Source: Comamonadaceae bacterium (GTDB taxonomy: Bacteria; Pseudomonadota; Gammaproteobacteria; Burkholderiales; Burkholderiaceae_C). From it: 32,497 nt of DNA. The DNA lies in assembly GCA_030528485.1 (NCBI GenBank), contig JAUMYU010000025.1, positions 1-32,497 on the forward strand. The letters run 5' to 3'. The position numbers and the translations under genes were made by a program. This document shows, piece by piece, positions 5,760 through 32,250 of this stretch. Under the pieces are notes generated by a model that was not told where the DNA came from, searched no databases, and saw only the letters and a list, made by a program, of their open reading frames with translations. Position 1 is the first letter of the stretch, and every line of letters starts with the position of its first letter.

Positions 5760-5842
5760 ATTTATCAATCAATGAGATAAAAAATAATGATTTTTCGGCA
5801 TGTGTGTCAAAGAATAAGTTTTCCTTTGAAATGGAATTTCAG
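5760..5842 (-). repeat. 3'-end palindromic repeat, copy A
   Basis: Read on the minus strand it shows the arm TTTCAAAGGAAAA, the core ATGCCGAAA and a distal arm ending ATTGATTGATAAA. On the plus strand, the coding strand of the upstream rpsQ, the core reads TTTCGGCAT. It follows the rpsQ terminator and ends three bases before the ATG of the next gene, so the GGAA of its arm (5833-5836) is the only ribosome-binding-like sequence before that gene. Confidence 0.8.
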
Positions 5843-5844
5843 CA

Positions 5845-6402
5845 ATGTTGAGGCCAGCGGCCAAAACGTGGCGCCTAGTGCGTCATCCCGGCTCAAGCTA
5901 TGGGCTGGCGTTGCAGATCACTGCTGCGCTGGCGCGCGAGCAAGGGTTGTGGCGTCTGGATTACAGCGTGCAAGGCGAGCTGAGCGCACTGAGGCTGCCT
6001 GAAGTGGCTGTGCATTCTGCGGCCGTGGATGAGCTATGGCGTCACACCTGTTTTGAAGCCTTTGTGGCTGGGGCGGGGGACGCCTATCACGAATTCAACT
6101 TCTCGCCTTCGGGCCATTGGGCGGCTTATGCCTTTTCCCGAGAGCGCGTGCGACAAGTGGCTGCTGCTCCCCTGCCGCCTGTGCATATCCATTGCGTGCG
6201 AGAGGCGCAGCGGCTGGCTTTGAGCGCATGGCTGGCCGATGCAGCACTGCCTTTGGGCAGTAGCGCGGCCCCATTGGGCTTGAGCGCCGTTATCGAAACC
6301 GCCGACGGCCATCTGAGCTATTGGGCCTTGCACCATCCCGCACCTCGTCCCGATTTCCATGCGCGCAGTGGCTGGATAGCGCGCTGGCCACTCACGGGAT
6401 GA
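5845..6402 (+). CDS. DOMON-like domain protein
   Basis: The 185-residue product resembles the DOMON-like family found beside cell-wall genes in Burkholderiales. The features I rely on are the block DELWRHTCFEAFVA near residues 63-76, followed by YHEFNFSPSGHWAAYAFS. These conserved W, H, C and FNFSPSG residues are typical of the family. No signal peptide or membrane segment is seen. The exact ligand is unknown; DOMON folds usually bind haem or sugar. It lies upstream of a DUF1343/NamZ gene on the same strand, which suggests a link to muropeptide or MurNAc metabolism. Only a weak GGAA, part of repeat A, precedes the ATG. The function is inferred. Confidence 0.75.
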   Translation: MLRPAAKTWRLVRHPGSSYGLALQITAALAREQGLWRLDYSVQGELSALRLPEVAVHSAAVDELWRHTCFEAFVAGAGDAYHEFNFSPSGHWAAYAFSRERVRQVAAAPLPPVHIHCVREAQRLALSAWLADAALPLGSSAAPLGLSAVIETADGHLSYWALHHPAPRPDFHARSGWIARWPLTG

Positions 6403-6576
6403 GTGTTCCAGCCAGTTTCGGCTGTGTTGGCGCCGCTTGCTGGCATTTCTGGTCAGAAGCGCCCTGTTTTTTGCTTAGCATCGGCGCTTTTTTGGGCGCG
6501 CAGCATCGGCTGTGATCGCGCGCTGCAACCATGCCTTGCGCGCGCTGCTCCCTTCGTAACCTTTGAGTTTTTACCC

Positions 6577-7794
6577 ATGCAAACCGGCCTCGAACGTTTT
6601 GTGCAAGATCCGGCTTTACGCGCGCCCCTCAAAGGCCGCCGCGTTGCCTTGCTGGCGCATCCCGCTTCTGTCACGCGCGAGTTGACCCACGCGCTGGATG
6701 CGCTGGCCCTCCTGCCCGACGTGCGCTTGGCAGCCGCTTTCGGCCCTCAGCATGGGCTGCGGGGCGACAAGCAAGACAACATGGTGGAGTCGCCTGATTA
6801 CACCGACCCACGGCTGGGCGTTCCCGTTTTCAGCCTTTATGGCCAAGTGCGCCGCCCTACCGACGCGATGATGGATACCTTTGACGTCCTGCTGGTTGAT
6901 CTGCAAGACTTGGGCTGTCGCATTTACACCTTCATCACCACCTTGCGCTACGTCCTGGAGGCCGCCGCGGCGCATGGCAAAGCGGTGTGGGTGCTGGATC
7001 GCCCCAACCCCGCCGGTCGCCCCGTTGAAGGCTTGAGCTTGCGCCCAGGGTGGGAAAGCTTCGTCGGCGCAGGCCCGCTGCCCATGCGCCACGGCATGAC
7101 GATGGGCGAGCTGGGGCACTGGTTTATTGCACGCTTGAGCTTGCAGCTTGAATACCGCGTGATCGCTATGCATGGCTGGCACCCCCATGCGCCCCCAGGC
7201 TATGGCTGGCCGCTTGGGCCGGGGGATTGGCGCAGTTGGGTGAACCCCAGCCCCAATGCAGCCAGTTTAGGCATGGCCCGAGCCTATGCGGGTACCGTCA
7301 TGCTCGAAGGCACGACCCTGAGCGAAGGCCGTGGCACCACACGCCCGCTGGAAATGTTCGGTGCGCCAGATATTGACACTGGCCGACTGCTCGAAGATAT
7401 GCGCGCCTTGGCCCCAAGCTGGATGCGCGGTTGTGCATTGCGCGAATGCTGGTTTGAGCCGACGTTTCACAAACATGCGGGGCAGTTGTGCGCAGGCGTG
7501 CAAATCCATGTAGAAGACCCCTGCCATTACGATCACGCCACTTTTCAGCCTTGGCGCTTGCAAGCATTGGTTTTCAAAGCGCTGCGTAAGCAGCAGCCAA
7601 ATTATCCGCTCTGGCGTGACTTTCCCTATGAATATGAGTACAACCGCCTGGCTATTGACCTGATTAATGGCAGCCCTTTATTGCGCGTTTGGGTGGATGA
7701 TGCCACTGCCGTGCCGGCTGATTTGGACGAGCTGGCGCGCCTTGACGAAGCGGCTTGGATGCGTGAACGAGAATCATATATTATGTATCCATAA
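6577..7794 (+). CDS. DUF1343 / NamZ-family exo-beta-N-acetylmuramidase
   Basis: The 405-residue product belongs to the DUF1343 family, whose characterised Bacillus member NamZ removes terminal MurNAc from peptidoglycan fragments. Recognisable blocks are GRRVALLAHPASVTREL near the N-terminus, AAFGPQHGLRGDKQDN, VPVFSLYG, FDVLLVDLQDLGCRIYTF, VLDRPNPAGR and MRHGMTMGELG, followed by EGTTLSEGRGTTRPLEMFGA. The frame stays open upstream to 6403, but that part has no family similarity, so the start at 6577 (MQTGLERF) is preferred. No signal peptide is evident from this start, which points to a cytoplasmic recycling role unless a secretion signal is missed. It pairs with the DOMON-like gene upstream. 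Confidence 0.85.
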   Translation: MQTGLERFVQDPALRAPLKGRRVALLAHPASVTRELTHALDALALLPDVRLAAAFGPQHGLRGDKQDNMVESPDYTDPRLGVPVFSLYGQVRRPTDAMMDTFDVLLVDLQDLGCRIYTFITTLRYVLEAAAAHGKAVWVLDRPNPAGRPVEGLSLRPGWESFVGAGPLPMRHGMTMGELGHWFIARLSLQLEYRVIAMHGWHPHAPPGYGWPLGPGDWRSWVNPSPNAASLGMARAYAGTVMLEGTTLSEGRGTTRPLEMFGAPDIDTGRLLEDMRALAPSWMRGCALRECWFEPTFHKHAGQLCAGVQIHVEDPCHYDHATFQPWRLQALVFKALRKQQPNYPLWRDFPYEYEYNRLAIDLINGSPLLRVWVDDATAVPADLDELARLDEAAWMRERESYIMYP

Positions 7795-7879
7795 TTTTAC
7801 ATATCAAGGAAAATTAATTTCTTATTTCTGCTGCAAATAATCATTATTTCTATTTTTTGGAAATGAAATTCTGATTGAA
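7795..7879 (+). repeat. 3'-end palindromic repeat, copy B (diverged)
   Basis: It starts at the base after the NamZ-like stop codon. TTTTACATATCAAGGAAAAT aligns with the stop-proximal arm of the other copies (TTTACAAATCAAAAGAAAT). The core is degenerate (TTTCTGCTGCA instead of TTTCGGCATGA) and the far arm is weak. It is the least certain member of the family. Confidence 0.5.
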
Positions 7880-8131
7880 TGTCTCGAAGCATGCGCTGAT
7901 ACGTGATCCATGCGCGGCCTCATGCCGGATCTTCGGCTTGAATTATTTGCATCAAATTGCAATAAATTGGGCCGCATGTTATGGGTATGGCGCAGTCGCT
8001 CAGCTCAGAAAGGTGCCGGTTGCTTCTGGGGCGAGTGCCCGGCTGCTTTGGAAATAGTAGGAAAACTCGTCTGATGCTGCGTTCGTTGTGGCGATTTGCC
8101 AGTTGCGCAGATCAGTAGTGGAAAGCCGGGG
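7880..8131. other. Long gap without a convincing gene, upstream of the surface-protein gene
   Basis: The gap between the NamZ-like gene and the large surface-protein gene is 551 bp. After repeat B it holds only short open frames of 60 and 87 codons, which lack recognisable similarity and good ribosome binding sites. Its later part contains the hairpin with a T12 tract and a promoter candidate, listed separately. I see no tRNA or known riboswitch. Confidence 0.5.
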
Positions 8132-8187
8132 GGCAAAGCTCAAATTTCCGTAGATTTATTTGAAGCCTTGCCACGTTTTTTTTTTTT
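8132..8187 (+). terminator. Hairpin followed by a 12-T tract in the leader region
   Basis: GGCAAAGCTCAAAT (8132-8145) pairs, with a mismatch and a bulge, with ATTTGAAGCCTTGCC (8158-8172) across a 12-nt loop. ACG and then twelve T residues (8176-8187) follow. This has the form of an intrinsic terminator. No credible gene ends just before it, so it may end readthrough from the NamZ-like unit or act as an attenuator for the gene at 8346. The homopolymer is long enough to be slippage-prone. Confidence 0.6.
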
Positions 8188-8284
8188 CGCTTACGATCAC
8201 GCTGACATTGGGCGGCTTCTACCCCGAAAGGAAGGGGTGGCTTCGGTCAATGGAAACATGGAGCGTGTACCTACTTGGCTTGCT

Positions 8285-8313
8285 TTGATACGGGCAGGCA
8301 CCATTGGTAAATA
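8285..8313 (+). promoter_or_regulatory. Candidate promoter of the surface-protein gene
   Basis: TTGATA (8285-8290) and TAAATA (8308-8313) are separated by exactly 17 bp, in an AT-rich stretch about 30 bp before the start codon. The -35 match is good and the -10 match only fair. GGGGGGA at 8331-8337 is a G-rich, imperfect ribosome binding site about 8 bases before the ATG at 8346. Confidence 0.4.
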
Positions 8314-8345
8314 TTTATTAACAAATAGTCGGGGGGATATTCCTT

Positions 8346-11300
8346 ATGACGAAAACTAACCCATCACGGTTCAGGCGTCACCCGTGGCCTTGGCGTGCAA
8401 CGGCGGGGGCGGCGCTGGTTGCGCTGGCTGCTTGGGCGACGCCCCATGCGCATGCCCAAGTGACTTTGCTGGATGTCAGCAACGGCACAGATGGCACTGA
8501 AGGTTTTGATGCAGGGCAGTCAGGCCCGGGCTATGACGCTGGGCCGACCAATAAAATCGTTCGTACCAACGATGAGTTCACCTACCAGATGACCTTTAGG
8601 ACGGGGGCTCTCGGGGACACGAACGTCAAACTCACTAGCAAGTTGCCCGCTGGCGGCCATAGTGAATGGACTGGAGTGCCTGGCCCGTGCGATGGCGCGG
8701 GCTCGGAGGTTTCGGCTGATGGTCAAACCTTGACGTGCGTAGTGACAAACGTCACTCCGAACACCACCCAGACCATTATTTTTACGGGGCTTGTGCGAGG
8801 GACTACGCCCAACAACACAGCATTAACCCCGCCAGTGACTGCGTTGACATCGGGCAGTGTTGCAACGGCCCTTTCACCCAATTCCAATGCCGAAAACCTG
8901 ACGGTAACGGCCGCCCCGTTTTATGACGTGGTGGTGCAGATGAGCTATCAAGGCAACCCCAGGAGTTATGGCTGGCGCACTGAAAACGGCCCTGCGGGCG
9001 AAGATGGTGCATACCATCGCCCAATGGTGGGCTTGGTGGCGCGTCACCCCAACGGTCATGGCCGCAAGGGGGTGGAGCAACTCAACAGTGACCCTGTAGA
9101 GATCAAAGTGGATCTTGCCTACCCCGCTGGTGTGCGCCTGGATACATGGCATGATGGCACTGCGCCACATGGCACGCCTGCGGCTACGGGGGGATTTGCC
9201 ACGGGCTGCGGAAGTCCTTGGGCGGGAAACCCCAGTTACGAATCTGGCAGCAGCATCAATACATTTGATCGGGTGCGGGATACGGGCGGGGCCAGTACGG
9301 CTGCCAGCGTGGTGCCCAATGGGGGCACTTGTGGCATTGTGAGCGCCACAGAGCAGCAAATCACGCTTTCGCTGACGGGAGTCGATACGTCCCTCAAGCG
9401 CCGCCCGACTCTGAAAGGGGGCGATTTCACGGTACCAGATACGGAGTGGTGGGTATCCAATAAAGCGTTAGTCTTGTGGACGCCTTTGAGCTCTTATCCC
9501 GCAAATGGCACTGCGCTCACGCATACCATCAAGTTCAATAGCATCAAGGCCAAGTCGATCAGCGGGCAGGCTGTGCCAGTGCCCGCCAATCCGCCGCAGG
9601 GGGGGCAGAAAGAAGCCTCCTATGCGATGCAGAACACCACTACAGGCAGCGCAAGCAAGTACTACACGCCTGAGGCCGTTGAAGCTGCGCCGCGACCTGC
9701 TCCCTTTGCCACGGCGGAAGACCCCGGCGTGAATAGTGATCGCCATGTAAACCACATGGCCAAAGCGCAGGTGGTGAGCGGTCGTGTGGTGTACAACAAT
9801 TTGGGGGCAACCGATCACTTTGATGTTTACCTGTGCGAAATCATTGACCGCACGGCGTTTGATCTTGACCCCGCGGTGTTCGGTGTGCGCAGTTATGGTC
9901 AGGTCAATACCGTTAAATACGGCTCGCGTAACGCCGGGAAGTTTTTCCCCAGTACTGGCACCGCTACGGGGGAGTATGCAGACTCCTCTATAGGCACCTC
10001 CGCGTACGGAACGGCTAAGTGTAATGATCCTGGTATCACATGGCATGGCAGCAAGGACGAAGCTGAGCAAGCTGGTGGTTTGGTGTATGTGCGCGCCGAC
10101 ATTCCACGCATGCGCGCAGGCGAGTCGCACTACTTGTACGTGCGAGGGTTGGTATTGCGCGAGACTTGGGCGGAAACCATTGATGTGGAGGGAGGTAGCC
10201 AGCGTGTGAAGGACGACCCCATCCCCGCAGGCGCTGTGATCCGCAACCGGGGCGATGTCAGCAGCGGTAGCGCGAACTTGGCTTGGATTGATGACGCGAT
10301 GTTGCGTGATCACTTGGTGGTTGTCCCCTCCCGTACCATCTCCCGCGTGAAGAAAACAGTGGCAAGTCCAGCAAATACCGATACGACGCCAGTTTCGGCG
10401 GGATCGACGGTCAGGTATCGTCTGGAGCCGCGTTTCGCAACAACTTTCCCGCCGCTGAAGGCTAACTTTACGGTGACGGATGTGTTGCCGCCGGGGCTGA
10501 CCTATCAACCAGGCAGTGCAACTGTTGCTCCCACTGTGGCGGCCAACACGCCTGAGGCGGGCTACACCACGCTGACTTGGGATCTTGGGGAGAAAACTCC
10601 CTATCTAGGCGCAGACAGCGATGCTGGCGCTCAGCTTGGTGCGATTGAATTTAATGCGGTGGTGGATCTTGGCGTTGCCAATGACTCTTCTTTGCGCAAC
10701 CACGTTGCCGTTCATGGCGGTATCAACGACTATGAAGCTGCATGCACATTTAGCACGGCTAATGGTTTTGGCGATTGTGCCAAGGCCAGTGTGGCCGATA
10801 TCCGGGTGAGAACCGCGCCGGGTTTCCGTATCGAAAAGCGTACGACCACTCCTACCATTACGGCTGGCGAGGATTTTCAGTACGAGCTGAAATACACCGC
10901 GTTGGTGGATGTTAGCGCCCCTGACATCCCCCACTGGATCGATATCTTGCCCTATGTTGGTGACTCGGCTTTGAGCCGCAGCCCGGGTTCGACATTTGAT
11001 GCTGGCGCCTACGCATTGAAAGGCGTTGTGAAGCCCACCGATGACGCTGCGGCGCAGATTTACTACACCAATCGCACGCCCGCCCAGGTCGAGAATGATC
11101 CTCGCCACGCCAGCAACGGCAGTGGTGGCGCAACGAAATGGTGTTTGGAGACTGCATTCGGCTCAGCAGGCTGCCCCGCTAACATGGCGGCTGTGACAGC
11201 GGTGCGTATCCAGCCCGGTGTTTCAACGCTGGCTGGCGGTAAGGGTTATGCCGTGCTGTTGAACTTCTCGACCGATGCCAATATCGCCAAAGGCGGAGAT

Positions 11301-14300
11301 ATTTTCAACAACAGCGTAGGTGGTCACTCGCCTGATCCAACAAGCAGCTTGCAATATGTCTATGCCCAGTCGCAGCAGCCTGTTCGCATTGCAGGCAATA
11401 GTCTGGCGGGCCATGTTTACGAAGACATGAATGACAATGGCCAGTTAGAGGGAGGGGAAGCGGGTATCGCGAACAACACCATCACCCTGTATGGCTGCGT
11501 TGCAGGCGCAAATGGCACGGTGGATACCACAGCCATGAATATGACCACGTCGCCGCCTTCTTGCACGGGCGATGACCAATTGGTTACGCGCACGGCTACG
11601 AGTGGGGCGACGGATGGCGCTTTTGCCTTCCAAGGCCTGGCAGATGGCTTGTACAGCCTGGTACAGCCTACTCAACCCGCTGGTTACAACGATGGCAAGA
11701 CCACAGCAGGCAATGGCGGCGGTACCGCCAGCGCACAAGGTACGCTGCCCAGCAGCATCGTCAATATCCCGTTGACGAACAATGGTGCGGGCAAAAATTA
11801 CAACTTTGGCGAGTTGAAGCCTGTGGGGCCAACCATTCAGGCAATTAATGATGACTATGGCAATAAGCCTAATAACGTCGTTCAGACACTGCCTTCGGTA
11901 TTGGTTGGCCCAGGCTCTACGCCTGACAAGGCCAATGGTGCGAATGCCGCAACAGGCCCTACTGGCAACGTCGATTTGACCCCCGGGGCGTTGTCGCACG
12001 CGCCTGCAACTGGTTCTATTTCGATGAATGCCGATGGGGTGATCACCATCGCAGCGGGTACGACGCCAGGCAGCTACACCTACGGTTACACAATCTGCCT
12101 GAAGGCGCCGCATCAAGCCACGTGCTCAACTGCAACCGCCAAGGTGACTGTCACAGGTGGCGCCCAGCCCACTCCGGCCATTGCCGCTGTTAATGATGAC
12201 TACGGTACGGTGGTCAACGACCAAGTACACACTTTGGTGACGGTGCTTCAAGGCCCCGGCACAACGCCAGACACTGCTAATGGGGTGCCTGCGACGCCGG
12301 CCAACGTTACGCTGACGCCAGGCACGCTCTCGGCCACGCCAGCAGATGGCGGTATCACCATGGATGCCAACGGCGTTATCACCGTCAAGAGCACGACAAC
12401 CCCTGGCACTTACACATACGGCTACAAGATCTGCCTCAAGGCACCCAATGCTGGTACCTGCGCGAGTGCGGAGGCCAAGGTGAAGGTGATCGCTGGCCCT
12501 CCTGCCCCTCCGGGACGGTCGAATGTCAGCCTGGTGAAAACAGTGGATAACCCTGGGGCGGCTATCGGTACGGAGGTGACCTTCACTGTCAAAGTGCAGA
12601 ACAGAGGTCCGGAAGATGCAGCCAATGTGCAAGTGCAAGAGCAATTGCCTGCCGGTTTTGCCTTGGTGAGCGCGAACCCGTCTGTTGGAGCTTATTCAGC
12701 GCCGACATGGACGATTGGGGCGCTTGCGAATGGAGCCAGTGCAACACTGACGATCAAAGCCAAAGTGAATGCGACAGGCCCTTACGCCAACACGGCAACC
12801 GTTTCGACTACGACGCCGGATTACAGCGCGGGCGACGACAGCGATACGGCTACAGTCACGCCTTCTGCTCCAGCAGCAATTGACGCTATTGATGACGACT
12901 ATGGAGTTAGGGAAAACAATAGGCTGCACACATTGCCCTCTGTTTTGACCGGCCCTGGTAGCACGCCGGACATGGTTGGGGGAGTAACAGCAGCGCCTGC
13001 GGATGTCACGCTGACTCCTGGTGCGCCCTCGATAGCGCCGACGGCAGGGTATATCGCCATGGATAGTGATGGCGTCATCATCATCGCAGCGGGCACGACT
13101 CCGGGCGAATACTCGTTTACCTACAAGATTTGCCTGAAAGCGCCCAATGATGCTGTGTGTGATACGGCTGTCGCCAAAGTGCGAGTCATTGCTGCGTCGG
13201 GGACGGAGCCCAGCATTGATGCGATTGATGACGACTACGGTACCAAGCCCAACAACGTGGCGCACACCTTGCCCTCAGTGCTGGTGGGCCCCGTTTCGAC
13301 ACCGGACAAGGCCGATGCGGGGGTGAATGCAACGCTTGCCAATGTGACGTTGACGCCTGGAGCGCCATCGGTAATGCCAGCAAACGGGGCGATTGCCATG
13401 AATGGCAGTGGTGAAATCACCATTGCTGCGGGCACGACGCCGGACGATTACCAGTTCGTTTATACGATTTGCCTGAAAGCGCCCCATGACACGGTGTGTG
13501 ACATTGCTATCGCTAAAGTGAAAGTGCAGGCTGCTACCGGCCCAGCCCCGACAGTTGACGCCATTGACGATAACTACGGTATCAAGATCAACAATGTGGC
13601 GCACACCTTGCCCTCGGTGTTGGTTGGCCCCAATGGCACGACGCCGGATCAGGCTAATGGTGTTAATGCTTCGTTGGTCAATGTAACGTTGACGCCGGGC
13701 ACTCTGTCCACGTTGCCAGCCACAGGTTCCATCGTGATGGATACCAGCGGCACGCTCACGATTGCGGCAGGTACGACGCCTGGCACTTACACCTATCCGT
13801 ACACGATTTGTCTGGTTGCGGCCAGCACCGTGTGCGACAGCGCAACGGCAACGGTGATCGTGGCCGGTGTGGCCGACATGGGTGTGGTCAAGACGGTGGA
13901 GCCTGGCGTGGTGGCCGCGGGCGACAAGGTGACCTTCACCATCACGGTGAAGAACCATGGCCCTTCGGATGCCCTGGATGTCCAAGTCATTGAGGCGCTG
14001 CCCAGCGGTTATACGCTGGTGTCGGCAACGCCAAGCGTGGGCACGTTTGCGGCGCCGGTCTGGAAAGTGGGCACTTTGGTTAATGGCGCCAGTGCCACGC
14101 TGAAGGTTGTGGCTACGGTGAACGCGACGGGCGATTACCTGAACGTGGTGACGGTGAGCACGGCGTCGAGTGACAGCGTGCATGCCAATAACCAGGCCAG
14201 TGTGATGCCAGCGTCCTTGCAGCAGCCCACGCCGCCTGCTTCGGCAGTGCCGGTGCCAGCCAATGCCCCATGGGCGGTGTTGCTAGTCATGCTGGCGATG

Positions 14301-14339
14301 TGGATGCTGGCGTACCGCGCAAGGTTTGGCCGCAAGTAA
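8346..14339 (+). CDS. Large secreted surface protein with DUF11-type domains, five internal repeats and C-terminal anchor
   Basis: This 1,997-residue protein has a signal peptide (basic start, hydrophobic AGAALVALAAWA, likely cleavage after AHA near residue 37). The N-terminal half has no family that I can name firmly. A DUF11-like domain starts near residue 666 (SRVKKTVASPANTD), and an SdrD/Cna-B-like domain near 1018 (GHVYEDMNDNGQLEGGE). Five ~112-residue repeats start near 1162, 1275, 1511, 1622 and 1735; each has a DDYG or DNYG motif, a TLPSVL-like strand, TIAAGTTPG-like and Y-x-ICL motifs, and two cysteines. DUF11 domains lie at about 1392-1500 (between repeats 2 and 3) and 1843-1950. 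The end is a VPVPANAPWA box, a membrane segment and a basic tail RARFGRK, similar in layout to IPTL/PEP-CTERM sorting signals. It is probably an adhesin or surface-layer-like protein; the role is inferred. A strong terminator follows. Confidence 0.85.
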   Translation: MTKTNPSRFRRHPWPWRATAGAALVALAAWATPHAHAQVTLLDVSNGTDGTEGFDAGQSGPGYDAGPTNKIVRTNDEFTYQMTFRTGALGDTNVKLTSKLPAGGHSEWTGVPGPCDGAGSEVSADGQTLTCVVTNVTPNTTQTIIFTGLVRGTTPNNTALTPPVTALTSGSVATALSPNSNAENLTVTAAPFYDVVVQMSYQGNPRSYGWRTENGPAGEDGAYHRPMVGLVARHPNGHGRKGVEQLNSDPVEIKVDLAYPAGVRLDTWHDGTAPHGTPAATGGFATGCGSPWAGNPSYESGSSINTFDRVRDTGGASTAASVVPNGGTCGIVSATEQQITLSLTGVDTSLKRRPTLKGGDFTVPDTEWWVSNKALVLWTPLSSYPANGTALTHTIKFNSIKAKSISGQAVPVPANPPQGGQKEASYAMQNTTTGSASKYYTPEAVEAAPRPAPFATAEDPGVNSDRHVNHMAKAQVVSGRVVYNNLGATDHFDVYLCEIIDRTAFDLDPAVFGVRSYGQVNTVKYGSRNAGKFFPSTGTATGEYADSSIGTSAYGTAKCNDPGITWHGSKDEAEQAGGLVYVRADIPRMRAGESHYLYVRGLVLRETWAETIDVEGGSQRVKDDPIPAGAVIRNRGDVSSGSANLAWIDDAMLRDHLVVVPSRTISRVKKTVASPANTDTTPVSAGSTVRYRLEPRFATTFPPLKANFTVTDVLPPGLTYQPGSATVAPTVAANTPEAGYTTLTWDLGEKTPYLGADSDAGAQLGAIEFNAVVDLGVANDSSLRNHVAVHGGINDYEAACTFSTANGFGDCAKASVADIRVRTAPGFRIEKRTTTPTITAGEDFQYELKYTALVDVSAPDIPHWIDILPYVGDSALSRSPGSTFDAGAYALKGVVKPTDDAAAQIYYTNRTPAQVENDPRHASNGSGGATKWCLETAFGSAGCPANMAAVTAVRIQPGVSTLAGGKGYAVLLNFSTDANIAKGGDIFNNSVGGHSPDPTSSLQYVYAQSQQPVRIAGNSLAGHVYEDMNDNGQLEGGEAGIANNTITLYGCVAGANGTVDTTAMNMTTSPPSCTGDDQLVTRTATSGATDGAFAFQGLADGLYSLVQPTQPAGYNDGKTTAGNGGGTASAQGTLPSSIVNIPLTNNGAGKNYNFGELKPVGPTIQAINDDYGNKPNNVVQTLPSVLVGPGSTPDKANGANAATGPTGNVDLTPGALSHAPATGSISMNADGVITIAAGTTPGSYTYGYTICLKAPHQATCSTATAKVTVTGGAQPTPAIAAVNDDYGTVVNDQVHTLVTVLQGPGTTPDTANGVPATPANVTLTPGTLSATPADGGITMDANGVITVKSTTTPGTYTYGYKICLKAPNAGTCASAEAKVKVIAGPPAPPGRSNVSLVKTVDNPGAAIGTEVTFTVKVQNRGPEDAANVQVQEQLPAGFALVSANPSVGAYSAPTWTIGALANGASATLTIKAKVNATGPYANTATVSTTTPDYSAGDDSDTATVTPSAPAAIDAIDDDYGVRENNRLHTLPSVLTGPGSTPDMVGGVTAAPADVTLTPGAPSIAPTAGYIAMDSDGVIIIAAGTTPGEYSFTYKICLKAPNDAVCDTAVAKVRVIAASGTEPSIDAIDDDYGTKPNNVAHTLPSVLVGPVSTPDKADAGVNATLANVTLTPGAPSVMPANGAIAMNGSGEITIAAGTTPDDYQFVYTICLKAPHDTVCDIAIAKVKVQAATGPAPTVDAIDDNYGIKINNVAHTLPSVLVGPNGTTPDQANGVNASLVNVTLTPGTLSTLPATGSIVMDTSGTLTIAAGTTPGTYTYPYTICLVAASTVCDSATATVIVAGVADMGVVKTVEPGVVAAGDKVTFTITVKNHGPSDALDVQVIEALPSGYTLVSATPSVGTFAAPVWKVGTLVNGASATLKVVATVNATGDYLNVVTVSTASSDSVHANNQASVMPASLQQPTPPASAVPVPANAPWAVLLVMLAMWMLAYRARFGRK

Positions 14340-14365
14340 TCGGCGCCAAGCGTTGATGCAATGAC

Positions 14366-14403: not shown

Positions 14404-14490
14404 GATGGTGTGGCCGCGATCATTGGAAACGCCGCAGCGATGCTGGGACGGGGGAGCTGTGCCTGACTTTCTTGCGCTCTGGCGGGCGCA

Positions 14491-14600: not shown

Positions 14601-14609
14601 GCGGCTGTT

Positions 14610-16618: not shown

Positions 16619-16660
16619 GCGGGTGGCTGTTGGCGATGGGGTGCGAAGAAGGAGTGTTCT

Positions 16661-16733
16661 ATTTCAAAAGAAATAACGCATATTGCATTCATTGCCAGAA
16701 TAAGGCGTTTTATTTTCTTTTGAAGAGTAAATT
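16661..16733 (+). repeat. 3'-end palindromic repeat, copy D
   Basis: The left arm is ATTTCAAAAGAAAT and the right arm TTTTCTTTTGAAGAGTAAA, with core CATTGCCAGAATAAG. Both arms carry the same variant, TTCAAAAGAA, where other copies have AATCAAAGGAA, so the pairing is kept. It lies about 27 bases 3' of the fdxA stop, in the gap before the reductase gene. Confidence 0.8.
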
Positions 16734-17275: not shown

Positions 17276-17391
17276 GAGAGCCTGTTCAAAATCCCTGCAC
17301 GGGGTGGTCAACAGCGCAGATTGGCGCCTTGCATCCCATCCCAAACCGCTTCTTGCCCAATCGCGCCGAGATTGAGAACAGGTTTTGAAAG
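17276..17391. repeat. CCTGTTC-bounded repeat (family 2), short copy
   Basis: It is bounded by CCTGTTC (17281-17287) and its inverse GAACAGG (17376-17382). The right half, from GCGCCTTGCATCCCATCCC through CGCGCCGAGATTGAGAACAG, is nearly identical to the right half of the element at 24050-24217. The central palindrome of that longer copy is missing here. No open frame is carried, so it is MITE-like or another dispersed intergenic repeat. Confidence 0.75.
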
Positions 17392-17530
17392 AGCTGGCGC
17401 TCGAGACCCAGGTGCGTGCCGCAGGTGCGAAGCGGGGGCAATTGTATCGATCTGAAAAAGCTGCGCGGGCCGGATGGGTTCAGGCGCGTGGCGTGTGCAG
17501 GTGTTTGCGCCATTGCGGGTGGAAAGTTCA

Positions 17531-24051: not shown

Positions 24052-24217
24052 GAACCTGTTCGAAACCCCTGCGCGGTGCTCAATCAAGTGGCTTTGGATG
24101 GTCTGCTGCGCAAGCGAAACTTGCCAATAGCACGTGCTATTGGCAAGTTTTGCGCCTTGCGTCCCATCCCGAACCGCTTTTTGTCCACTCGCGCCGAGAT
24201 CGTGAACAGGTTCTGAG
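24050..24217. repeat. CCTGTTC-bounded repeat (family 2), full copy with a perfect 34-bp palindrome
   Basis: AGAACCTGTTC at the left end and GAACAGGTTCT at the right end form 11-bp terminal inverted repeats. The left end overlaps the TGA of the fusion gene. Inside, AAACTTGCCAATAGCAC (24117-24133) is followed directly by its exact reverse complement (24134-24150), a perfect 34-bp palindrome. The right ~65 bp match the copy at 17276-17391. No open frame is seen. As RNA the palindrome would form a strong hairpin 3' of the glycosyltransferase gene. Confidence 0.8.
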
Positions 24218-24250
24218 CGCGCAGCCACACGTCACACAAAGGAGTGCAAC

Positions 24251-24907: not shown

Positions 24908-24947
24908 ACGCAGCCAGCCAAGCTGGCCAGTGCTGGCACCAATACCA

Positions 24948-24993
24948 GCCCAACAGCCGCCCGTAGCGCAGCGGGCGGCGGTTGGGCTTTTTT
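24948..24993 (+). terminator. Intrinsic terminator of the esterase gene
   Basis: GCCCAAC-A-GCCGCCCG pairs with CGGGCGGC-G-GTTGGGC around an 8-nt loop, and the right arm runs into TTTTTT (24988-24993). The stem is about 15 bp long and GC-rich. Repeat copy F begins 8 bases later. Confidence 0.93.
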
Positions 24994-25000
24994 GCCTTGA

Positions 25001-25078
25001 ATTTCAATCAAAGGAAAATAGAGTCGTTGCCCATCATGCCGAAATATGGTTGTTTCTTTTCCTTTTGATTGGTAATAA
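25001..25078 (+). repeat. 3'-end palindromic repeat, copy F
   Basis: The left arm is AATCAAAGGAAAA, the core ATCATGCCGAAATA and the right arm TTTTCCTTTTGATTGGTAA. It lies about 30 bases 3' of the stop of the minus-strand ACP-like gene and after the esterase terminator on the plus strand. Confidence 0.85.
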
Positions 25079-25108
25079 AAGTGGTTTCCGGCCCTTGAAA
25101 CCGCTGTT

Positions 25109-25345
25109 TCAAAACCGCTGCCGGGCGTGGCGTTCCACCAGCTCGCAATATTCGCCCACGGTGCGGCACTGGCTGGCGCTTTGGGTGCTGATGTTCAGGT
25201 TCAGGGCGATGCAGGTTTCGTCGTTGATGGTGGCCTTGTCGCTCCAGTGCGCGATGGGGGTGTGGGCCTCGATATCGGCTACGGCCACCCCCATGACCTG
25301 GGCGGCAATGCGCATGACTTGCTGATCGATGCGGGCGTACATCAT
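25109..25345 (-). CDS. Small ACP-like protein lacking the usual DSL phosphopantetheine site
   Basis: I do not recognise this 78-residue protein by name. Its layout is like an acyl carrier protein: a first helix IDQQVMRIAAQVMGVAVADI, a middle segment with STQSASQCRTVGE, and a last helix ELVERHARQRF. The place where ACPs have DSL reads SDKATINDETC, so no canonical phosphopantetheine serine is apparent. It starts 11 bases after the pepA stop on the same strand and is probably co-transcribed with it. In many proteobacteria this place holds holC, but the product is about half the length of HolC and shows no similarity that I can see. The ACP link rests on my own alignment and is weak. Confidence 0.6.
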   Translation of the reverse strand: MMYARIDQQVMRIAAQVMGVAVADIEAHTPIAHWSDKATINDETCIALNLNISTQSASQCRTVGEYCELVERHARQRF

Positions 25346-25356
25346 GCGCCTGGCCT

Positions 25357-26964: not shown

Positions 26965-27018
26965 GTGTGCATTCCTTTGATCGGTCGATAAGAACTCGGA
27001 TCTTCCCTTCCCAACCCC

Positions 27019-28158
27019 ATGTTGTTCGATACCTCTCTGCGCAAGGATTTGTCCCGCAGCTTTCTGGGCACGCTCACGGTGCTGTTGATGGTGGTCATCA
27101 CCTTGATGCTGATTCGCACGCTGGGCCAGGCCAGCAAGGGGTCGGTCAGTCCGTCCGACATTATGCTGGTGATGGGCTACACGGTTTTGGGCTACATGCC
27201 CATTGTGTTGAGCTTGAGCCTGTTCGTGGCCGTCATTGGCACGCTGGCGCGCATGTACCAGGACAGCGAAATGGTGATCTGGTTTGCCAGCGGGCGGGGG
27301 CTGGCGGGCTTTTTGCCCACCCTGGCGCGCTTTGCCTGGCCGCTGGTGCTGGCCATTGGCGCGCTGTCGCTGTTTGCATGGCCGTGGTCGCAGGCGCAGA
27401 TTCTGGATTTGCGCAACCAGTTCCAGCAGCGCAGCGATCTCGATCGCATTGCGCCGGGCGAGTTTCAGGTTTCCTCCAGTGGCGACAGCGTTTTTTTCGT
27501 GGACCGCGACAGCAGCTCGCTGGAGCAGGCGCGGCAAATCTTCTTCGCGCAGGAAAAGCCCGAGGAAAGCTCCGTCACCACCGCGCGCAGCGCCAGCCTG
27601 GTGCAGCAAGGCGGCCAAAGCTGGGTGGTGCTGGAGACCGGCCAGCGCGTGGAGCAAATCCGTGGCGACAAACCCGCACTGCGCGTGGCCGAGTTCGACC
27701 GCTATGAAGTGCTGCTGCGGCGCGACCCGGCAAGCGAGGCGCAAACCAGCATCCGCGCCACGCCCAGCGCCGAGCTGCTGGCCAGGATTGACGATCCCGA
27801 GCAGGGCAACGCCTACGAGGCCGAGCTGGTCTGGCGCGCCGGGCTGGCGCTGGCGGCCATCAACTACGTCATCCTGGCGCTGGCGCTGACCAGCAGCAAC
27901 CCGCGCTCGGGCCGCATGGGCCATGTGGTGACGGCGCTGCTGGTCTTTGTGGTGTATTTCAACCTGCTCTCGCTGGGGCAGAACTGGGTGGCGCGCGGGC
28001 GCATCCACGGCGGGCTGTGGCTGGCCCTGCTGCATGGGGGCGTGTTTGCGCTGGCCTGGGCCTGGCTGATGGCGCGCAATGCCCAGTGGACGCTGGGCCA
28101 GTGGCGCGGGCGGGCGCGCCGCAAAGCCGCCGTCGTAGGCGGAGAGGGCCGCGCATGA
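27019..28158 (+). CDS. lptF: LPS export ABC permease LptF
   Basis: LptF and LptG form the inner-membrane permease of the LptB2FGC complex, which extracts lipopolysaccharide for transport to the outer membrane. The 379-residue product starts MLFDTSLRKDLSRSFLGTLT and has three N-terminal membrane segments with the conserved motif YMPIVLSLSLFVAVIGTLAR. A periplasmic domain follows (GEFQVSSSGDSVFFVDRDSS), then three C-terminal membrane segments. The stop codon overlaps the lptG start in ATGA. It is divergent from pepA. Confidence 0.95.
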   Translation: MLFDTSLRKDLSRSFLGTLTVLLMVVITLMLIRTLGQASKGSVSPSDIMLVMGYTVLGYMPIVLSLSLFVAVIGTLARMYQDSEMVIWFASGRGLAGFLPTLARFAWPLVLAIGALSLFAWPWSQAQILDLRNQFQQRSDLDRIAPGEFQVSSSGDSVFFVDRDSSSLEQARQIFFAQEKPEESSVTTARSASLVQQGGQSWVVLETGQRVEQIRGDKPALRVAEFDRYEVLLRRDPASEAQTSIRATPSAELLARIDDPEQGNAYEAELVWRAGLALAAINYVILALALTSSNPRSGRMGHVVTALLVFVVYFNLLSLGQNWVARGRIHGGLWLALLHGGVFALAWAWLMARNAQWTLGQWRGRARRKAAVVGGEGRA

Positions 28159-29357
28159 AAATCGTCACCCGCATGCTGCAAAGCGAAATCATCGCCACTG
28201 TGGCGATGACGACGCTGGCGTTTCTGGCCCTGCTGCTGTTTTTCGATTTGATCGACGAGAGCCGCTTCGTCAGCCGCTCGGGCGTGCAATCGTCCTACGG
28301 CGTGGCGCAGATGCTGGGGCACATGGCCTTGTCGGCCCCCATGCATGTGTATGAGCTGCTGCCCATTTGCGTGCTGATTGGCTCCGTGTTCGTCATGGCC
28401 CGCTATGCGCGCACCTCGCAATTCACCATCTTGCGCACGGGCGGGCTGGGGCCGGGGCAGGCGCTGGGCATTTTGCTTTCGGTCGGGCTGCTGTTTACGG
28501 CGGTGACGTTTGTGATGGGCGATTACGTCGCGCCCTGGGCCGAACGCTCGGCCCAGTTGCTGCGCGCCAAGCACTTGGGCGGGCAGGTGCACGCGGGGCG
28601 GGCCGGGGCTTGGCTGCGCGAGCGGCAGGGCGCACAGGCAGAGGGGCAGGCAGGAGGCGGGCAGACAGGCGGCTCAGTCATCGTCAGCGTCGCCGCCGTG
28701 CGCACCGATGGCCTGGCGCAAGGCGTGCGCATCTTCCAGTTTGCGCCCGATGGGCGGCTTCAGCGGCAAATCCGCGCCGACAGCGCCGAGCTGCCGCCCG
28801 CGCACGATGCAGCGGGCCAAGGGGCCTGGCTGCTGCACGACGCCCATGAGCATGTGCTGCCCGCAGGCGTGGCGCCGCCCGTGTTGCAGGCCGATGGCAG
28901 CCTCAGCGGCGCGCTGGAGCCGATGCGGGTGCAGCAGCACGCCCGGCTGCGCTGGCCCACCACGCTCAGCCGCGAGATGCTCGATGCCGCCATCCTCAAA
29001 CCCGATGGCATGTCCACCATGCAGCTCATCAGCTACGTCAAGCACTTGCGCGCCAACGACCAATCCACCCAGCGCTTTGAAATCGAGCTGTGGCGCAAGG
29101 TGTTTTACCCGCTGGGCTGCCTGGTAATGATGGTGCTGGCGCTGCCGTTTGCGTATTTGCACTTTCGCTCCGGCAGCATCGTCGGCCACATGTTTCTGGG
29201 CATTTTGGTGGGCATCAGCTACCTCATGCTCAACAACGTGCTGGGCTATGTGGGCAATCTGCACGGCTGGCCGCCCCTGCTGGCCGCGGCTACGCCGGCC
29301 ATGCTCTACAGCGCGCTGGCGCTGGGCGTGTTCGTTTACATGGTGCGCAAGCGGTGA
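28155..29357 (+). CDS. lptG: LPS export ABC permease LptG
   Basis: This is the second permease subunit of the LPS exporter, 400 residues from the ATG at 28155, which overlaps the lptF stop. A longer frame exists upstream, but this start gives the family N-terminus MKIVTRMLQSEIIATVAMTT. Visible blocks are FLALLLFFDLIDESRFV, YELLPICVLIGSVFVMARYA (segment 2) and, in the C-terminal part, LWRKVFYPLGCLVMMVLALP. The 4-base overlap suggests equal production of both subunits. There is a Gly/Gln-rich stretch (GQAGGGQTGG) in the periplasmic domain. Repeat copy G and the leuD terminator follow. Confidence 0.95.
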   Translation: MKIVTRMLQSEIIATVAMTTLAFLALLLFFDLIDESRFVSRSGVQSSYGVAQMLGHMALSAPMHVYELLPICVLIGSVFVMARYARTSQFTILRTGGLGPGQALGILLSVGLLFTAVTFVMGDYVAPWAERSAQLLRAKHLGGQVHAGRAGAWLRERQGAQAEGQAGGGQTGGSVIVSVAAVRTDGLAQGVRIFQFAPDGRLQRQIRADSAELPPAHDAAGQGAWLLHDAHEHVLPAGVAPPVLQADGSLSGALEPMRVQQHARLRWPTTLSREMLDAAILKPDGMSTMQLISYVKHLRANDQSTQRFEIELWRKVFYPLGCLVMMVLALPFAYLHFRSGSIVGHMFLGILVGISYLMLNNVLGYVGNLHGWPPLLAAATPAMLYSALALGVFVYMVRKR

Positions 29358-29365
29358 ATGGTGTT

Positions 29366-29440
29366 GCACATCAAAGTAAAAATGGCTTGATGCGAGAATT
29401 GCCGAAATGACGTTATTTTATTGCTTTTGATTTGTAAAAA
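29366..29440 (+). repeat. 3'-end palindromic repeat, copy G
   Basis: The left arm is ACATCAAAGTAAAAAT, the core ATTGCCGAAATGACG and the right arm TTGCTTTTGATTTGTAAAAA. It lies directly beyond the leuD terminator on the minus strand. The A run at its right end supplies the T run of that terminator. Confidence 0.85.
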
Positions 29441-29467
29441 AGGGGCCGCCTGGAGAGGCGGCCCTTT
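29434..29467 (-). terminator. Terminator of leuD (minus strand)
   Basis: GGGCCGCC (29443-29450) and GGCGGCCC (29457-29464) form an 8-bp stem around a 6-nt loop. On the minus strand the stem is followed by C and TTTTTT, which come from the edge of repeat G. It lies about 31 bases after the leuD stop. On the plus strand only a short CTTT follows, so any effect on lptG would be weaker. Confidence 0.85.
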
Positions 29468-29497
29468 CGGCATGCGCGTCGTTCCAAGACGGCCGGC

Positions 29498-30166
29498 TTA
29501 CTCCGGCGCGCGCTCCACCGCCATCGTGCGCGCCAGCCAGGGCTTGCGCGCCAGGCGCTCTGCCTCGAATGCGCGAATCTTGTCGGCGTGGCGCAGCGTC
29601 AGGCCAATGTCGTCAAAGCCATTGAGCAGGCAGTATTTGCGAAACGGGATGATGTCAAAGGGCAGCGGCTCGCCCTGCGGCGGCAGGATGTGCTGGTTTT
29701 CCAGATCGATGGTCAGCTCGTAGCCGGGGAAGGCGCACACCTCGTCAAACAGGCGGCTGACGACCGGCTCGGGCTGCACGATGGGCAGCAGGCCGTTTTT
29801 GAAGCTGTTGTTGAAAAAGATGTCCGCGTAGCTGGGCGCGATGATGGCGCGAAAGCCGTATTGCACCAGCGCCCAGGGCGCGTGTTCGCGCGAGGAACCG
29901 CAGCCGAAGTTCTGGCGCGTCAGCAGGATCGAGGCCCCTTTGTAGCGTGGCTGGTTGAGCACAAAGTCCGGGTTGGGCTTGCGCTCGGACTCGGGCACGC
30001 CGGGCTGGCCGGGCTGGTCCAGATAACGCCATTCGTCAAACAGGTTGGGGCCAAAGCCCGTGCGTTTGATGGATTTGAGAAATTGCTTGGGGATGATGGC
30101 GTCGGTATCGACGTTTTCCCGGTCAAGCGGGGCGACTAAGCCTTTGTGGACGGTGAACTTTTGCAT
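29498..30166 (-). CDS. leuD: 3-isopropylmalate dehydratase small subunit
   Basis: LeuD pairs with LeuC to isomerise 2-isopropylmalate to 3-isopropylmalate in leucine biosynthesis. The 222-residue product starts [20 protein letters not shown] and holds [38 protein letters not shown] (the family hallmark) and [20 protein letters not shown]. The frame is open further upstream, but CCGGAG before the ATG at 30166 fixes this start. It follows leuC and a small lipoprotein gene on the same strand. leuB, which often follows in related bacteria, is not found here; lptG comes next, convergent. Confidence 0.96.
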
Positions 30167-30197
30167 GGTGCTCCGGAGGGGACGGCGGTGCGGGATT

Positions 30198-30277
30198 GTT
30201 CCAATCAAAGGAAATTTTGCTTTATGCCTATCATGCCGAAAAAGCAATGTTTTATTTCTTTTGATTTGTAAAATAAA
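30198..30277 (+). repeat. 3'-end palindromic repeat, copy H
   Basis: This is one of the best copies. The left arm is CAATCAAAGGAAATTTT, the core CTATCATGCCGAAAAA and the right arm ATTTCTTTTGATTTGTAAAA. The single arm mismatch would be a G-T (G-U in RNA) wobble. It lies between leuD and the entericidin-like gene, on the 3' side of the latter. Confidence 0.88.
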
Positions 30278-30310
30278 CCCAGCCCGCCCCGGGCGGATGG
30301 AGGCGGGCCG
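30276..30310 (-). terminator. Possible terminator of the small lipoprotein gene
   Basis: On the minus strand GCCCGCC and GGCGGGC pair around a 13-nt loop (30282-30308) and are followed by TGGGTTTATTTT. The T run is interrupted, so termination may be incomplete, which would allow leuD to be read from leuC. GGCCC-GCAA-GGGCC between it and the stop codon (30319-30332) is a second small hairpin. Confidence 0.5.
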
Positions 30311-30338
30311 GGTGGGCAGGCCCTTGCGGGCCGGGGCG

Positions 30339-30479
30339 TTACTTGGCTTTTTCAGCAGCGCGTTCGATGGCCGCGCCGCCTTTTTGCACGTCCTGGCCTA
30401 CGCCTTGCACGGTGTTGCAGCCTGTCACGGCCAAGGCCAGCAGCGATGCGAACAGGGCCGATGCGATGGTTTTCATCAT
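30339..30479 (-). CDS. Entericidin A/B-family small lipoprotein
   Basis: This 46-residue lipoprotein begins [20 protein letters not shown] and has Cys right after, so TGC ends the lipobox. The mature part, [20 protein letters not shown], matches the entericidin family. E. coli entericidins are small lipoproteins linked to stationary-phase lysis, but the role of this one is not known. AGGAG sits seven bases before the start. It lies between leuC and leuD on the same strand, so its expression may be tied to leucine genes, although the placement may simply be inherited in this lineage. Confidence 0.85.
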
Positions 30480-30601
30480 GTGTTTCTCCTTGAGAAATTA
30501 TGGGAACAATCCGGCGCTCTCGCAGGGGGGATGCGCCGGAGGGGCGACCTTACAACGTTTTGGCGTGCGGGCTGAGCAGGCTGAGCAGACGGGCCGTGCG
30601 C

Positions 30602-32053
30602 TCAGGCAAAGCGGCGCACGTCCACAAAATGCCCGTGGATGGCGGCGGCGGCGGCCATGGCGGGGCTGACCAGATGGGTGCGCCCGCCCGCGCCCTGGCG
30701 GCCTTCGAAGTTGCGGTTGCTGGTGGAGGCGCAGCGTTCGCCGGGTTCGAGCCGGTCGGCATTCATGGCCAGGCACATGGAGCAGCCCGGTTCGCGCCAT
30801 TCAAAGCCTGCGGCGGTGAAGATTTTGTCCAGCCCTTCGCGCTCGGCCTGCTCGCGCACCAGGCCAGAGCCGGGCACGACCATCGCCAGCTTGACGTTTC
30901 TGGCGACTTTCTGGCCGAGTTTTTTCACCACGGCGGCGGCTTCGCGCATGTCTTCAATGCGGCTGTTGGTGCACGAGCCGATGAAGACTTTGTCCACGTG
31001 GATGTCGGACAGGGGCTTGCCCGGCTCCAGGTTCATGTAGTGCAGGGCGCGCTCCATGGCGTTGCGCTTGACGGCGTCCTTTTCCTTGTCGGGATCGGGC
31101 ACGCGCGCGTCCACGCCCAGCACCATCTCCGGCGAGGTGCCCCAGGTGACCTGGGGCACGATTTGCGCGGCGTCCAGCTCGACGATTTTGTCGAACACGG
31201 CATCGGGGTCGGAGTGCAGGGTGCGCCAGTAGGCGACGGCGTGATCCCACTCGGGGCCGCCGACGAAGCGGCCGGTGGCTTCGTCAAAGCCGGGCGCCAG
31301 CGGGCGGCCTTTGAGGTATTCGATGGTTTTGTCGTCCACGGCCACCAGCCCGGCGCGCGCGCCCGCTTCAATGGCCATGTTGCAGATGGTCATGCGCCCT
31401 TCCATGCTCAGGGCGCGGATGGCGCTGCCGGCGAATTCGATGGTGTAGCCCGTGCCGCCTGCGGTGCCGATCTTGCCGATGATGGCCAGCACGATGTCCT
31501 TGGCGGTGATGCCTGGCGCCACTTGCCCTTCGACGCGGATGAGCATGTTCCTGGCTTTTTTCGCCAGCAGGGTTTGCGTGGCCATGACGTGCTCGACCTC
31601 GCTGGTGCCGATGCCGTGCGCCAGCGCGCCAAACGCGCCGTGGGTGGAGGTGTGGCTGTCGCCGCAAACGACGGTCATGCCCGGCAAGGTGGCGCCGTTT
31701 TCCGGCCCGACGACGTGCACGATGCCCTGGCGGCGGCTCATGAAGGGGAAGAAGGCCGCCGCGCCAAACTGGTTGATGTTGTGGTTGAGGGTGACGATTT
31801 GCTCTTTGCTGATGGGGTCTTCAATGCCGTCGTAGCCGCGCTCCCAGCCGGTGGTGGGGGTGTTGTGGTCGGCCGTGGCGACGATGGAGCTGATGCGCCA
31901 GACTTTGCGACCGGCCTCGCGCAGGCCCTCGAAAGCCTGCGGGCTGGTGACTTCGTGCACCAGGTGGCGGTCGATGTAGAGCACGGCGGTGCCGTCTTCC
32001 TCGGTGTGCACGACGTGCTCGTCGAATATCTTGTCGTAGAGGGTTTTGCTCAT
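30602..32053 (-). CDS. leuC: 3-isopropylmalate dehydratase large subunit
   Basis: LeuC is the 4Fe-4S cluster subunit of isopropylmalate isomerase. The 483-residue product begins [20 protein letters not shown]. It carries [20 protein letters not shown], the first cluster Cys in [20 protein letters not shown], and the second and third in GCSMCLAMN. The open frame extends upstream to 32143, but the start at 32053 fits the family. It is the first gene of the minus-strand leuC-lipoprotein-leuD unit. Confidence 0.97.
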
Positions 32054-32095
32054 GGCGCTGTTCGTGAGGTGTAGGGGTAGGGAGACAAACGCTCT

Positions 32096-32101
32096 ATTGT
32101 A
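32096..32101 (-). promoter_or_regulatory. Candidate -10 element for leuC
   Basis: On the minus strand TACAAT lies 43 bp before the leuC start, giving a short leader. No good -35 sequence is found at normal spacing, so the promoter may need an activator such as a LysR-type regulator. This is a weak call. Confidence 0.3.
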
Positions 32102-32173
32102 AAGAGGCGGCGTTTTTTTCCGCTTCGGGCAAAGCTTTGGCACGCGCGCTGCGCGCCTGGCGCTGCGGCTTAT

Positions 32174-32250
32174 TTTTCAAATCAATGGAAAATTGATTTA
32201 TTGAAAATACTGCCTAAATAGCGTTATTTTATTTCCATTGATTTGTAAAT
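32174..32250 (+). repeat. 3'-end palindromic repeat, copy I
   Basis: The left arm is CAAATCAATGGAAAAT, the core TACTGCCTAAATAGCG and the right arm ATTTCCATTGATTTGTAAAT. Both arms carry the same variant, AATCAATGG instead of AATCAAAGG, so their pairing is exact. It ends three bases from the stop codon (minus strand) of the ABC ATPase gene. Confidence 0.88.

What the first reader, a model, noticed from the sequence alone, without database searches (positions are those of the whole stretch)
5760..32250. Nine-member family of AT-rich palindromes placed at gene 3' ends
Copies lie at 5760, 7795, 14610, 16661, 17531, 25001, 29366, 30198 and 32174. Each is 75-85 bp, AT-rich in a GC-rich background, with arms related to AATCAAAGGAAAT / ATTTCTTTTGATTTGTAAA and a core near ATGCCGAAA. 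In all nine the element lies 3' of a gene in the same relative orientation: on that gene's coding strand the core reads TTTCGGCAT or a variant. This holds for two plus-strand genes (rpsQ, NamZ-like) and seven minus-strand genes (methyltransferase, fdxA, phosphoglycosyl transferase, ACP-like, leuD, entericidin, DppF-type). A random intergenic repeat would not be expected to keep this polarity. It may be a mobile element that targets gene ends, or a transcribed 3'-UTR structure. I do not know a described family that matches.
Basis: partly seen in the sequence, partly recalled or inferred. Interest (0 to 1): 0.88.

Follow-up and report, generated by a model that had tools for sequence, protein, structure and literature searches.

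The report
Constrained dyad repeat, hundreds of copies
Two closely related bacteria from the genus of a dog-bite bacterium carry hundreds of copies of one 80-letter DNA element, mostly just behind genes, and the key letters of the copies compared stay unchanged, which points to an unknown protein that binds DNA all over the chromosome.

Summary
The family is real: a profile finds 175 copies in 739 kb of this genome and 233 in 960 kb sampled of a sister species. Among genomes searched, only two others match (3 copies and 1). The polarity claim fails: 14610 lies on the other strand, and between tandem genes the element is codirectional 55 times, reversed 41. The 3'-end bias is real.

The surprise is constraint. 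In 84 orthologous pairs the 21 most conserved columns differ by 2.3%, the 11 least conserved by 31%, with similar constraint in every gene context. The arms do not covary; they are two inverted, closely similar degenerate half-sites around an asymmetric core. I found no empty site among 87 mapped, no paralogue above 89% identity, no convincing target duplication and no Y1 (REP) transposase.

Best reading: a transposon-like burst, now immobile and kept as chromosome-wide binding sites of an unidentified, probably dimeric, protein. Protein and role were not identified.

The parts
5759..5839 (+). element copy, behind rpsQ (S17), tandem genes, codirectional
   Evidence: profile E 6.3e-12; 49.4 bits
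7795..7868 (.). degraded copy behind NamZ; one good half-site at its left end
   Evidence: 12.5 bits on -, 9.4 on +; not found at E<1e-3; half-site 26.6 bits
   Evidence: 25.9 bits on +, 14.0 on -; E 7.2e-6
16657..16733 (-). element copy behind the ferredoxin gene, codirectional
   Evidence: E 1.8e-7; 30.9 bits
17534..17612 (-). element copy behind the glycosyltransferase family 4 gene, codirectional
   Evidence: E 4.8e-10; 54.2 bits
25000..25080 (-). element copy between convergent genes (GDSL lipase and a 78-aa protein)
   Evidence: E 2.9e-18; 68 bits
29364..29441 (-). element copy between convergent genes (LptF/LptG-type and LeuD-type)
   Evidence: E 6.7e-14; 60.2 bits
30197..30275 (-). element copy behind the entericidin gene, codirectional
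   Evidence: E 1.2e-16; 76.3 bits
32172..32250 (-). element copy behind the oligo_HPY (DppF-type) gene, codirectional
   Evidence: E 6.5e-14; 60.8 bits

Best explanation
The element is about 80 bp: two inverted copies of one half-site (roughly TTACAAATCAAAGGAAA, with positions that accept only two bases) around an asymmetric core (TTTnGGCA), at nearly fixed spacing. Inferred history: it spread like a miniature transposon in the common ancestor of two Vandammella-related species and then stopped moving. Shown: hundreds of copies, shared sites in both species wherever compared, and strong conservation of key positions in each gene context and both orientations. Inferred mechanism: each copy is a binding site of a dimeric DNA-binding protein (a domesticated transposase or a nucleoid protein would fit) that acts at DNA level whatever the local transcription, most likely in chromosome architecture, segregation or supercoil handling. 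Gene 3' ends are where a bound complex is tolerated. Protein and exact role are not identified.
For: Column-wise constraint between G000 and G009 in 84 pairs, rho -0.89, and -0.86 when columns are ranked on 86 copies outside the pairs. Conserved columns differ by 2.3-3.3%, below other intergenic DNA (about 9%) and third codon positions (about 8%). Score falls by 4.2 bits on average where the same number of changes at random columns would cost 41. Similar constraint and score in convergent, tandem and divergent gaps and both orientations. Same degenerate pattern in both arms, correlation 0.878 in one register against at most 0.52 in twelve others. No arm-to-arm covariation. Few half-sites outside elements: 5 in 1.70 Mb above the element quartile, three of them in degraded copies. 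Shared sites: 43 of 43 in long blocks; 87 mapped, 84 with a unique profile hit.
Against: No binding protein was found and no experiment exists. The arms are not identical in every position: in the matching register one position is G 0.95 in the left arm but G 0.53 / T 0.38 in the right, another A 0.74 / T 0.23 against A 0.94 / T 0.04. The 3'-end bias and the short distance to stop codons are not explained by a position-independent role. Orthologue difference is a fairly even fraction (0.28-0.45) of paralogue diversity, which exchange between copies would also give. Unconstrained positions evolve faster than ordinary noncoding DNA, unexplained. The burst is inferred from absence in relatives; no autonomous parent was found, and the G000/G009 samples cover about a third of each genome.
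Confidence: 0.55

Rival explanations
1. An ordinary extinct MITE or REP-like repeat: neutral, decaying, and left at gene ends because insertions elsewhere were harmful.
For: Terminal inverted repeats, AT-rich, intergenic in 173 of 175, lineage-limited, no movement seen. REPs too lie mostly between unidirectional and convergent genes (PMC3733652, passages).
Against: Conserved columns differ by 2-3% and variable ones by about 30% between orthologues; few decayed members, 171 of 182 places at E<=1 have E<1e-5.
Confidence: 0.1
2. A transcription terminator or 3'-UTR element, either as an RNA hairpin or as a protein roadblock at gene ends.
For: Preference for 3' ends and convergent gaps. Element-bearing ends are called terminator-like more often when the element itself is included: 38 of 89 tandem and 51 of 88 convergent, against 33 of 114 and 15 of 54 without element; the element is T-rich and its own segments had no shuffled control. 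Two of nine window copies fold much better than shuffles (z -3.5 and -4.8).
Against: No covariation and no consensus RNA structure; asymmetric core but no significant orientation bias; equal constraint in divergent gaps, where no gene ends (147 conserved-column cells). A symmetric roadblock would escape the first two points but not the last. A terminator before the element was called in only 12 of 89 and 16 of 88 ends, which does not decide the matter.
Confidence: 0.15
3. An uptake or exchange signal: the motif is kept because DNA that carries it is preferentially taken up, as with DUS or USS.
For: Constraint independent of gene context; one copy in V. animalimorsus lies in DNA 99% identical to G000 over about 1.55 kb, so element-bearing DNA does move between species.
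Against: Far longer than DUS or USS as I recall them; almost absent from coding DNA (2 of 175); local excess divergence falls off within about 20 bp, not over kilobases.
Confidence: 0.07
4. Concerted evolution: frequent short exchanges between copies keep the family similar, without selection on each copy.
For: Orthologue difference is a fairly even fraction (0.28-0.45) of paralogue diversity over column classes; no linkage between columns; numbers of differences per pair are overdispersed (variance 30.6 against 9.7).
Against: Differences cluster only at lags 1-2, so no tracts; no paralogues above 89% identity; the orthologue is the best match in 77 of 84. Exchange alone does not make some columns invariant and others free.
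Confidence: 0.06

Closest known systems
REP / BIME repeats (GTAG- and CGTC-tagged REPs)
   Same: Hundreds of intergenic palindromic copies, mostly between unidirectional and convergent genes (PMC3733652, passages).
   Different: About 80 bp instead of 14-40 nt; arms do not covary; GTAG near an end in 2 of 172 copies; no Y1 transposase hit in G000 or G009.
Bacterial MITEs (e.g. NEMIS/Correia, RUP, ERIC)
   Same: 70-300 bp, terminal inverted repeats of 15-30 bp, no coding capacity (feature list in a passage of PMC3733652).
   Different: No target duplication stands out, no parent found, and each copy is conserved in place.
Uptake signal sequences (DUS, USS)
   Same: Context-independent conserved motif in hundreds of copies.
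   Different: Much longer, dyad half-sites plus core, almost never in coding DNA. Features of DUS/USS are from memory except that DUS pairs can form terminators (passage of PMC2267715).
Integron attC sites
   Same: Imperfect dyad just behind a gene (from memory).
   Different: The two attC boxes occur together in 0 of 172 copies; no covariation.
IHF sites (and IHF/gyrase-bound BIMEs)
   Same: The arm contains ATCAA-like sequence, and BIMEs bind host proteins (abstract of PMC2817692 in a listing).
   Different: Full consensus WATCAANNNNTTR (recalled) is found in 1 of 172 copies.

Membership tests
REP elements | 14-40 nt palindrome that forms a stem-loop | tested here: not met
   about 80 bp; mirror pairing no better than independent arms, z 0.94; definition from a passage of PMC12306157
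REP elements | GTAG tag at one end (CGTC not tested) | tested here: not met
   GTAG near an end in 2 of 172 copies
REP elements | Y1 (RAYT/TnpA-REP) transposase in the genome | tested here: not met
   0 matches to PF01797 in G000 (80.5% complete) and G009 (99% complete); 5 of 10 genus genomes have one
MITE | terminal inverted repeats, short, AT-rich, intergenic | tested here: met
   arms similar in inverted register, correlation 0.878; 173 of 175 intergenic
MITE | target-site duplication | tested here: inconclusive
   strongest of 5103 tests was 6 of 171 copies against 0.5 expected; old duplications may be eroded
MITE | insertion polymorphism or empty sites | tested here: inconclusive
   0 of 87 mapped sites empty in G009; at prpC-acnD G007 lacks the pair that G005 and G009 have
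MITE | autonomous parent with the same ends | tested here: inconclusive
   no convincing inverted solo half-site pair in 1.70 Mb of G000 and G009; not all of either genome was seen
Integron attC | both core boxes RYYYAAC and GTTRRRY (recalled) | tested here: not met
   together in 0 of 172; RYYYAAC in 0, GTTRRRY in 5
IHF site | WATCAANNNNTTR (recalled) | tested here: not met
   1 of 172 copies
Structured RNA family | match to an Rfam model | tested here: not met
   no match at gathering scores in the window
Structured RNA family | conserved base pairing with covariation | tested here: not met
Genome-wide protein binding site | positional constraint in each copy, independent of context | tested here: met
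   divergent group small
Genome-wide protein binding site | specific binding by a host protein | not testable with these tools
   no protein identified
Uptake signal sequence | favours DNA uptake | not testable with these tools
   needs a transformation assay

The most novel reading that the evidence does not exclude
A lineage-specific chromosome-wide site system: hundreds of 80-bp asymmetric dyad sites, read by one unknown protein, installed by a transposon-like burst within one genus and then held by selection at each location: a young, complete chromosomal addressing or architecture system.
Probability: 0.35. Interest if true: 0.85.

Novelty: new variant of a known kind. Interest (0 to 1): 0.65.

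Why it matters
Dispersed bacterial repeats are usually seen as transposon debris or RNA structures. Here a recent, lineage-limited burst seems to have become hundreds of selected DNA sites within one genus, so the step from mobile element to chromosomal function could be dated and tested by comparing sister species with and without it. The rapid change right next to conserved positions is a further clue that something acts at these sites.

Tried and rejected
RNA structure: RNAalifold gave no pairs for 35 copies. Mutual information between columns at least 4 apart exceeds the maximum of three permutations for 3 column pairs, none of them left arm against right arm. Mirror pairing 2814 of 4295 cells against 2788 expected, z 0.94. 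Of nine single folds, two have z below -3.

Decaying relic: rejected by column-wise constraint, rechecked with columns ranked on copies outside the pairs.

Orientation with neighbours or replication: adjacent copies 71 same, 87 opposite, and no evident link to GC skew per contig by eye. Regular spacing: CV 0.78 against 0.82 (sd 0.05) for random slots. A-tract phasing: weak, AA/TT signal 5.2-5.5 against 3.9-4.1 shuffled at the best periods.

Machinery: no Y1 transposase in G000 or G009. Tyrosine recombinases: 4 matches in G000, 2 in G009. DDE_Tnp_1: 5 in G000, 12 in G009, 0 to 19 in the others, so not specific to the two species. Other transposase families were not searched. Viral contigs: one pattern, 0 matches. 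Plasmids: one 501-base query, no match. Rfam: window only, no match.

Terminators: my own simple finder; not decisive.

Papers: searches (listings and abstract starts); passages read in PMC12306157, PMC3733652, PMC2267715. None of what I saw describes this family; the library lacks most subscription journals.

Caveats: genes were called with my own codon-usage script, not a standard finder. G000 stretches came from contigs known to hold a hit; 20 G009 stretches were chosen around hits and others for synteny, so densities may be somewhat high. The profile was seeded with 35 copies and rebuilt once. Three of 175 hits were too short for the 172-copy alignment. Of 87 mapped sites, 3 were left out of the pairs: one with two candidates, two with DNA of about element length but no profile hit. 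Flank mapping against G007 placed only 6 sites, too diverged for a target-site analysis. In the first half-site scan runs of N were scored as A; the scan was repeated with N excluded, and only the second is used for solo sites.

Full report
What is there. A profile built from 35 copies and rebuilt once finds 175 places at E<1e-3 in 739 kb of the window's own genome (G000); 171 of them have E<1e-5, and only 182 places appear at E<=1, so decayed members are few. That is about 1 per 4.2 kb, or some 560 in 2.36 Mb by simple scaling. The sister genome G009 has 233 in 960 kb sampled.

Where it lives. In 399 genomes of the family only G000, G005 and G009 match, and in 398 of the phylum only G000. These samples overlap and large searches use stricter filters. 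G005 appears to be Vandammella animalimorsus, since its leuC is identical to that of a named strain. One of its copies is clearly in imported DNA: the locus is 99% identical to G000 over about 1.55 kb, while leuC is 87% identical between them. Its other two form a pair at the prpC-acnD junction, where G009 has the same pair and G007, otherwise 96% identical to G005 on one side, has none; import or loss in G007 are both possible. The G008 copy lies on a 4.4-kb contig of an incomplete assembly and its origin is unclear. G007 has no copy in 400 kb.

Gene context. 173 of 175 copies are outside called genes. Copies per kb of other noncoding DNA are 4.11 (convergent), 1.91 (tandem) and 0.51 (divergent) in G000, and 3.83, 1.88 and 0.96 in G009. 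In tandem gaps 75 of 96 lie nearer the upstream stop, median 17.5 bp. Orientation follows the gene weakly if at all: 55 to 41 (p=0.18) and 69 to 59 (p=0.43). The two genomes are not independent, since their sites are shared.

Anatomy. In 172 aligned copies spacing is almost constant; many positions accept two bases and exclude the others, and positions vary nearly independently. The left arm and the reverse complement of the right arm show the same degenerate pattern: correlation 0.878 in one register, at most 0.52 in twelve others. For example C/T is 0.70/0.28 and 0.73/0.26, and A/T 0.80/0.19 in both; a few positions differ between the arms. Yet the arms do not covary (z 0.94). That is what two half-sites read by one DNA-binding protein would show, and not what a maintained hairpin would show; this step is inference. 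The core TTTnGGCA is nearly invariant and not symmetric.

Immobility. In 133 kb of long aligned blocks 43 of 43 G000 copies are shared with G009. By flank mapping 87 sites were placed in G009 and none is empty: 84 have one profile hit, one has two candidates, two have DNA of about element length without a hit. No two of 172 copies in G000 are more than 89% identical. No target duplication stands out. Eight close pairs, 80-101 bp apart, were seen, six of them head to tail.

Constraint. In 84 orthologous pairs the difference rate per column falls with the family's information content (rho -0.89): 31% in the 11 least informative columns, 2.3% in the 21 most informative. Ranking columns on 86 copies outside the pairs gives 30% and 3.3% (rho -0.86). 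For scale, other intergenic DNA differs by 9%, third codon positions by 8% and positions 1-2 by 1.8%. At two-state columns changes are mostly between the same two bases. The profile score falls by 4 bits on average, where the same number of changes at random columns would cost 41. Constraint is similar in all contexts: conserved-column differences are 10 of 588 (tandem, codirectional), 6 of 314 (tandem, reversed), 19 of 693 (convergent) and 4 of 147 (divergent), and scores do not differ. So whatever keeps the element does not seem to need a nearby gene end.

Against and unexplained. Variable columns differ by about 27-31% and the first 10 bp of noncoding flank by 18-20%, falling to about 9% beyond 20-40 bp; in coding flank the fall is from 18% to 4%. 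Gene 3' ends without the element show 9-10% in their first 20 bp. Differences cluster only at lags 1-2, but their number per pair is overdispersed. A bound protein that disturbs repair or replication, or repeated cleavage, would fit; neither was tested. Terminator-like hairpins are called more often at element-bearing ends when the element itself is counted, which keeps a termination role alive. The 3'-end bias itself is not explained by a position-independent role.

Reading. Shown: a lineage-limited family, shared sites, strong per-copy constraint, two similar half-sites and an asymmetric core. Inferred: a transposon-like burst, and maintenance as sites of a dimeric DNA-binding protein. Not shown: the protein, and the role. 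The family fails tested defining features of REPs and attC and meets only part of those of MITEs. I call it a new variant of a known kind (dispersed intergenic repeat), with a fair chance that the function is new.

Noticed in passing
window 17318-17419 and 24146-24247; also G009 contig C1: A second repeat family, with GAGCCTGTTCAAAATC...GAACAGGCTC ends in a G009 copy; the two window copies are 76% identical.
   Followed up: no
L252:1-55 (G008) and many G009 stretches: A third, GC-richer repeat of about 55 bp (AGTGCATAACACGCTCTA-like), 92-100% identical between G008 and G009 copies.
   Followed up: no
window 8346-14339: A giant protein frame of 1997 aa with DUF11 repeats and internal DNA repeats at about 340-bp spacing.
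   Followed up: no
G005 contig C18, L074 and L249: V. animalimorsus (G005) has a locus 99% identical to G000 and a prpC-acnD region of mixed ancestry, a sign of recent exchange between species of the genus.
   Followed up: partly
flanks of the elements, G000 against G009: Substitution rate rises about two-fold in noncoding and four-fold in coding flank within the first 5-10 bp of the elements.
   Followed up: partly
G000 C125, C93, C33, C84, C80, C42, C4, C77: Eight pairs of elements 80-101 bp apart, six head to tail and two opposed; no other pair is closer than 732 bp.
   Followed up: partly
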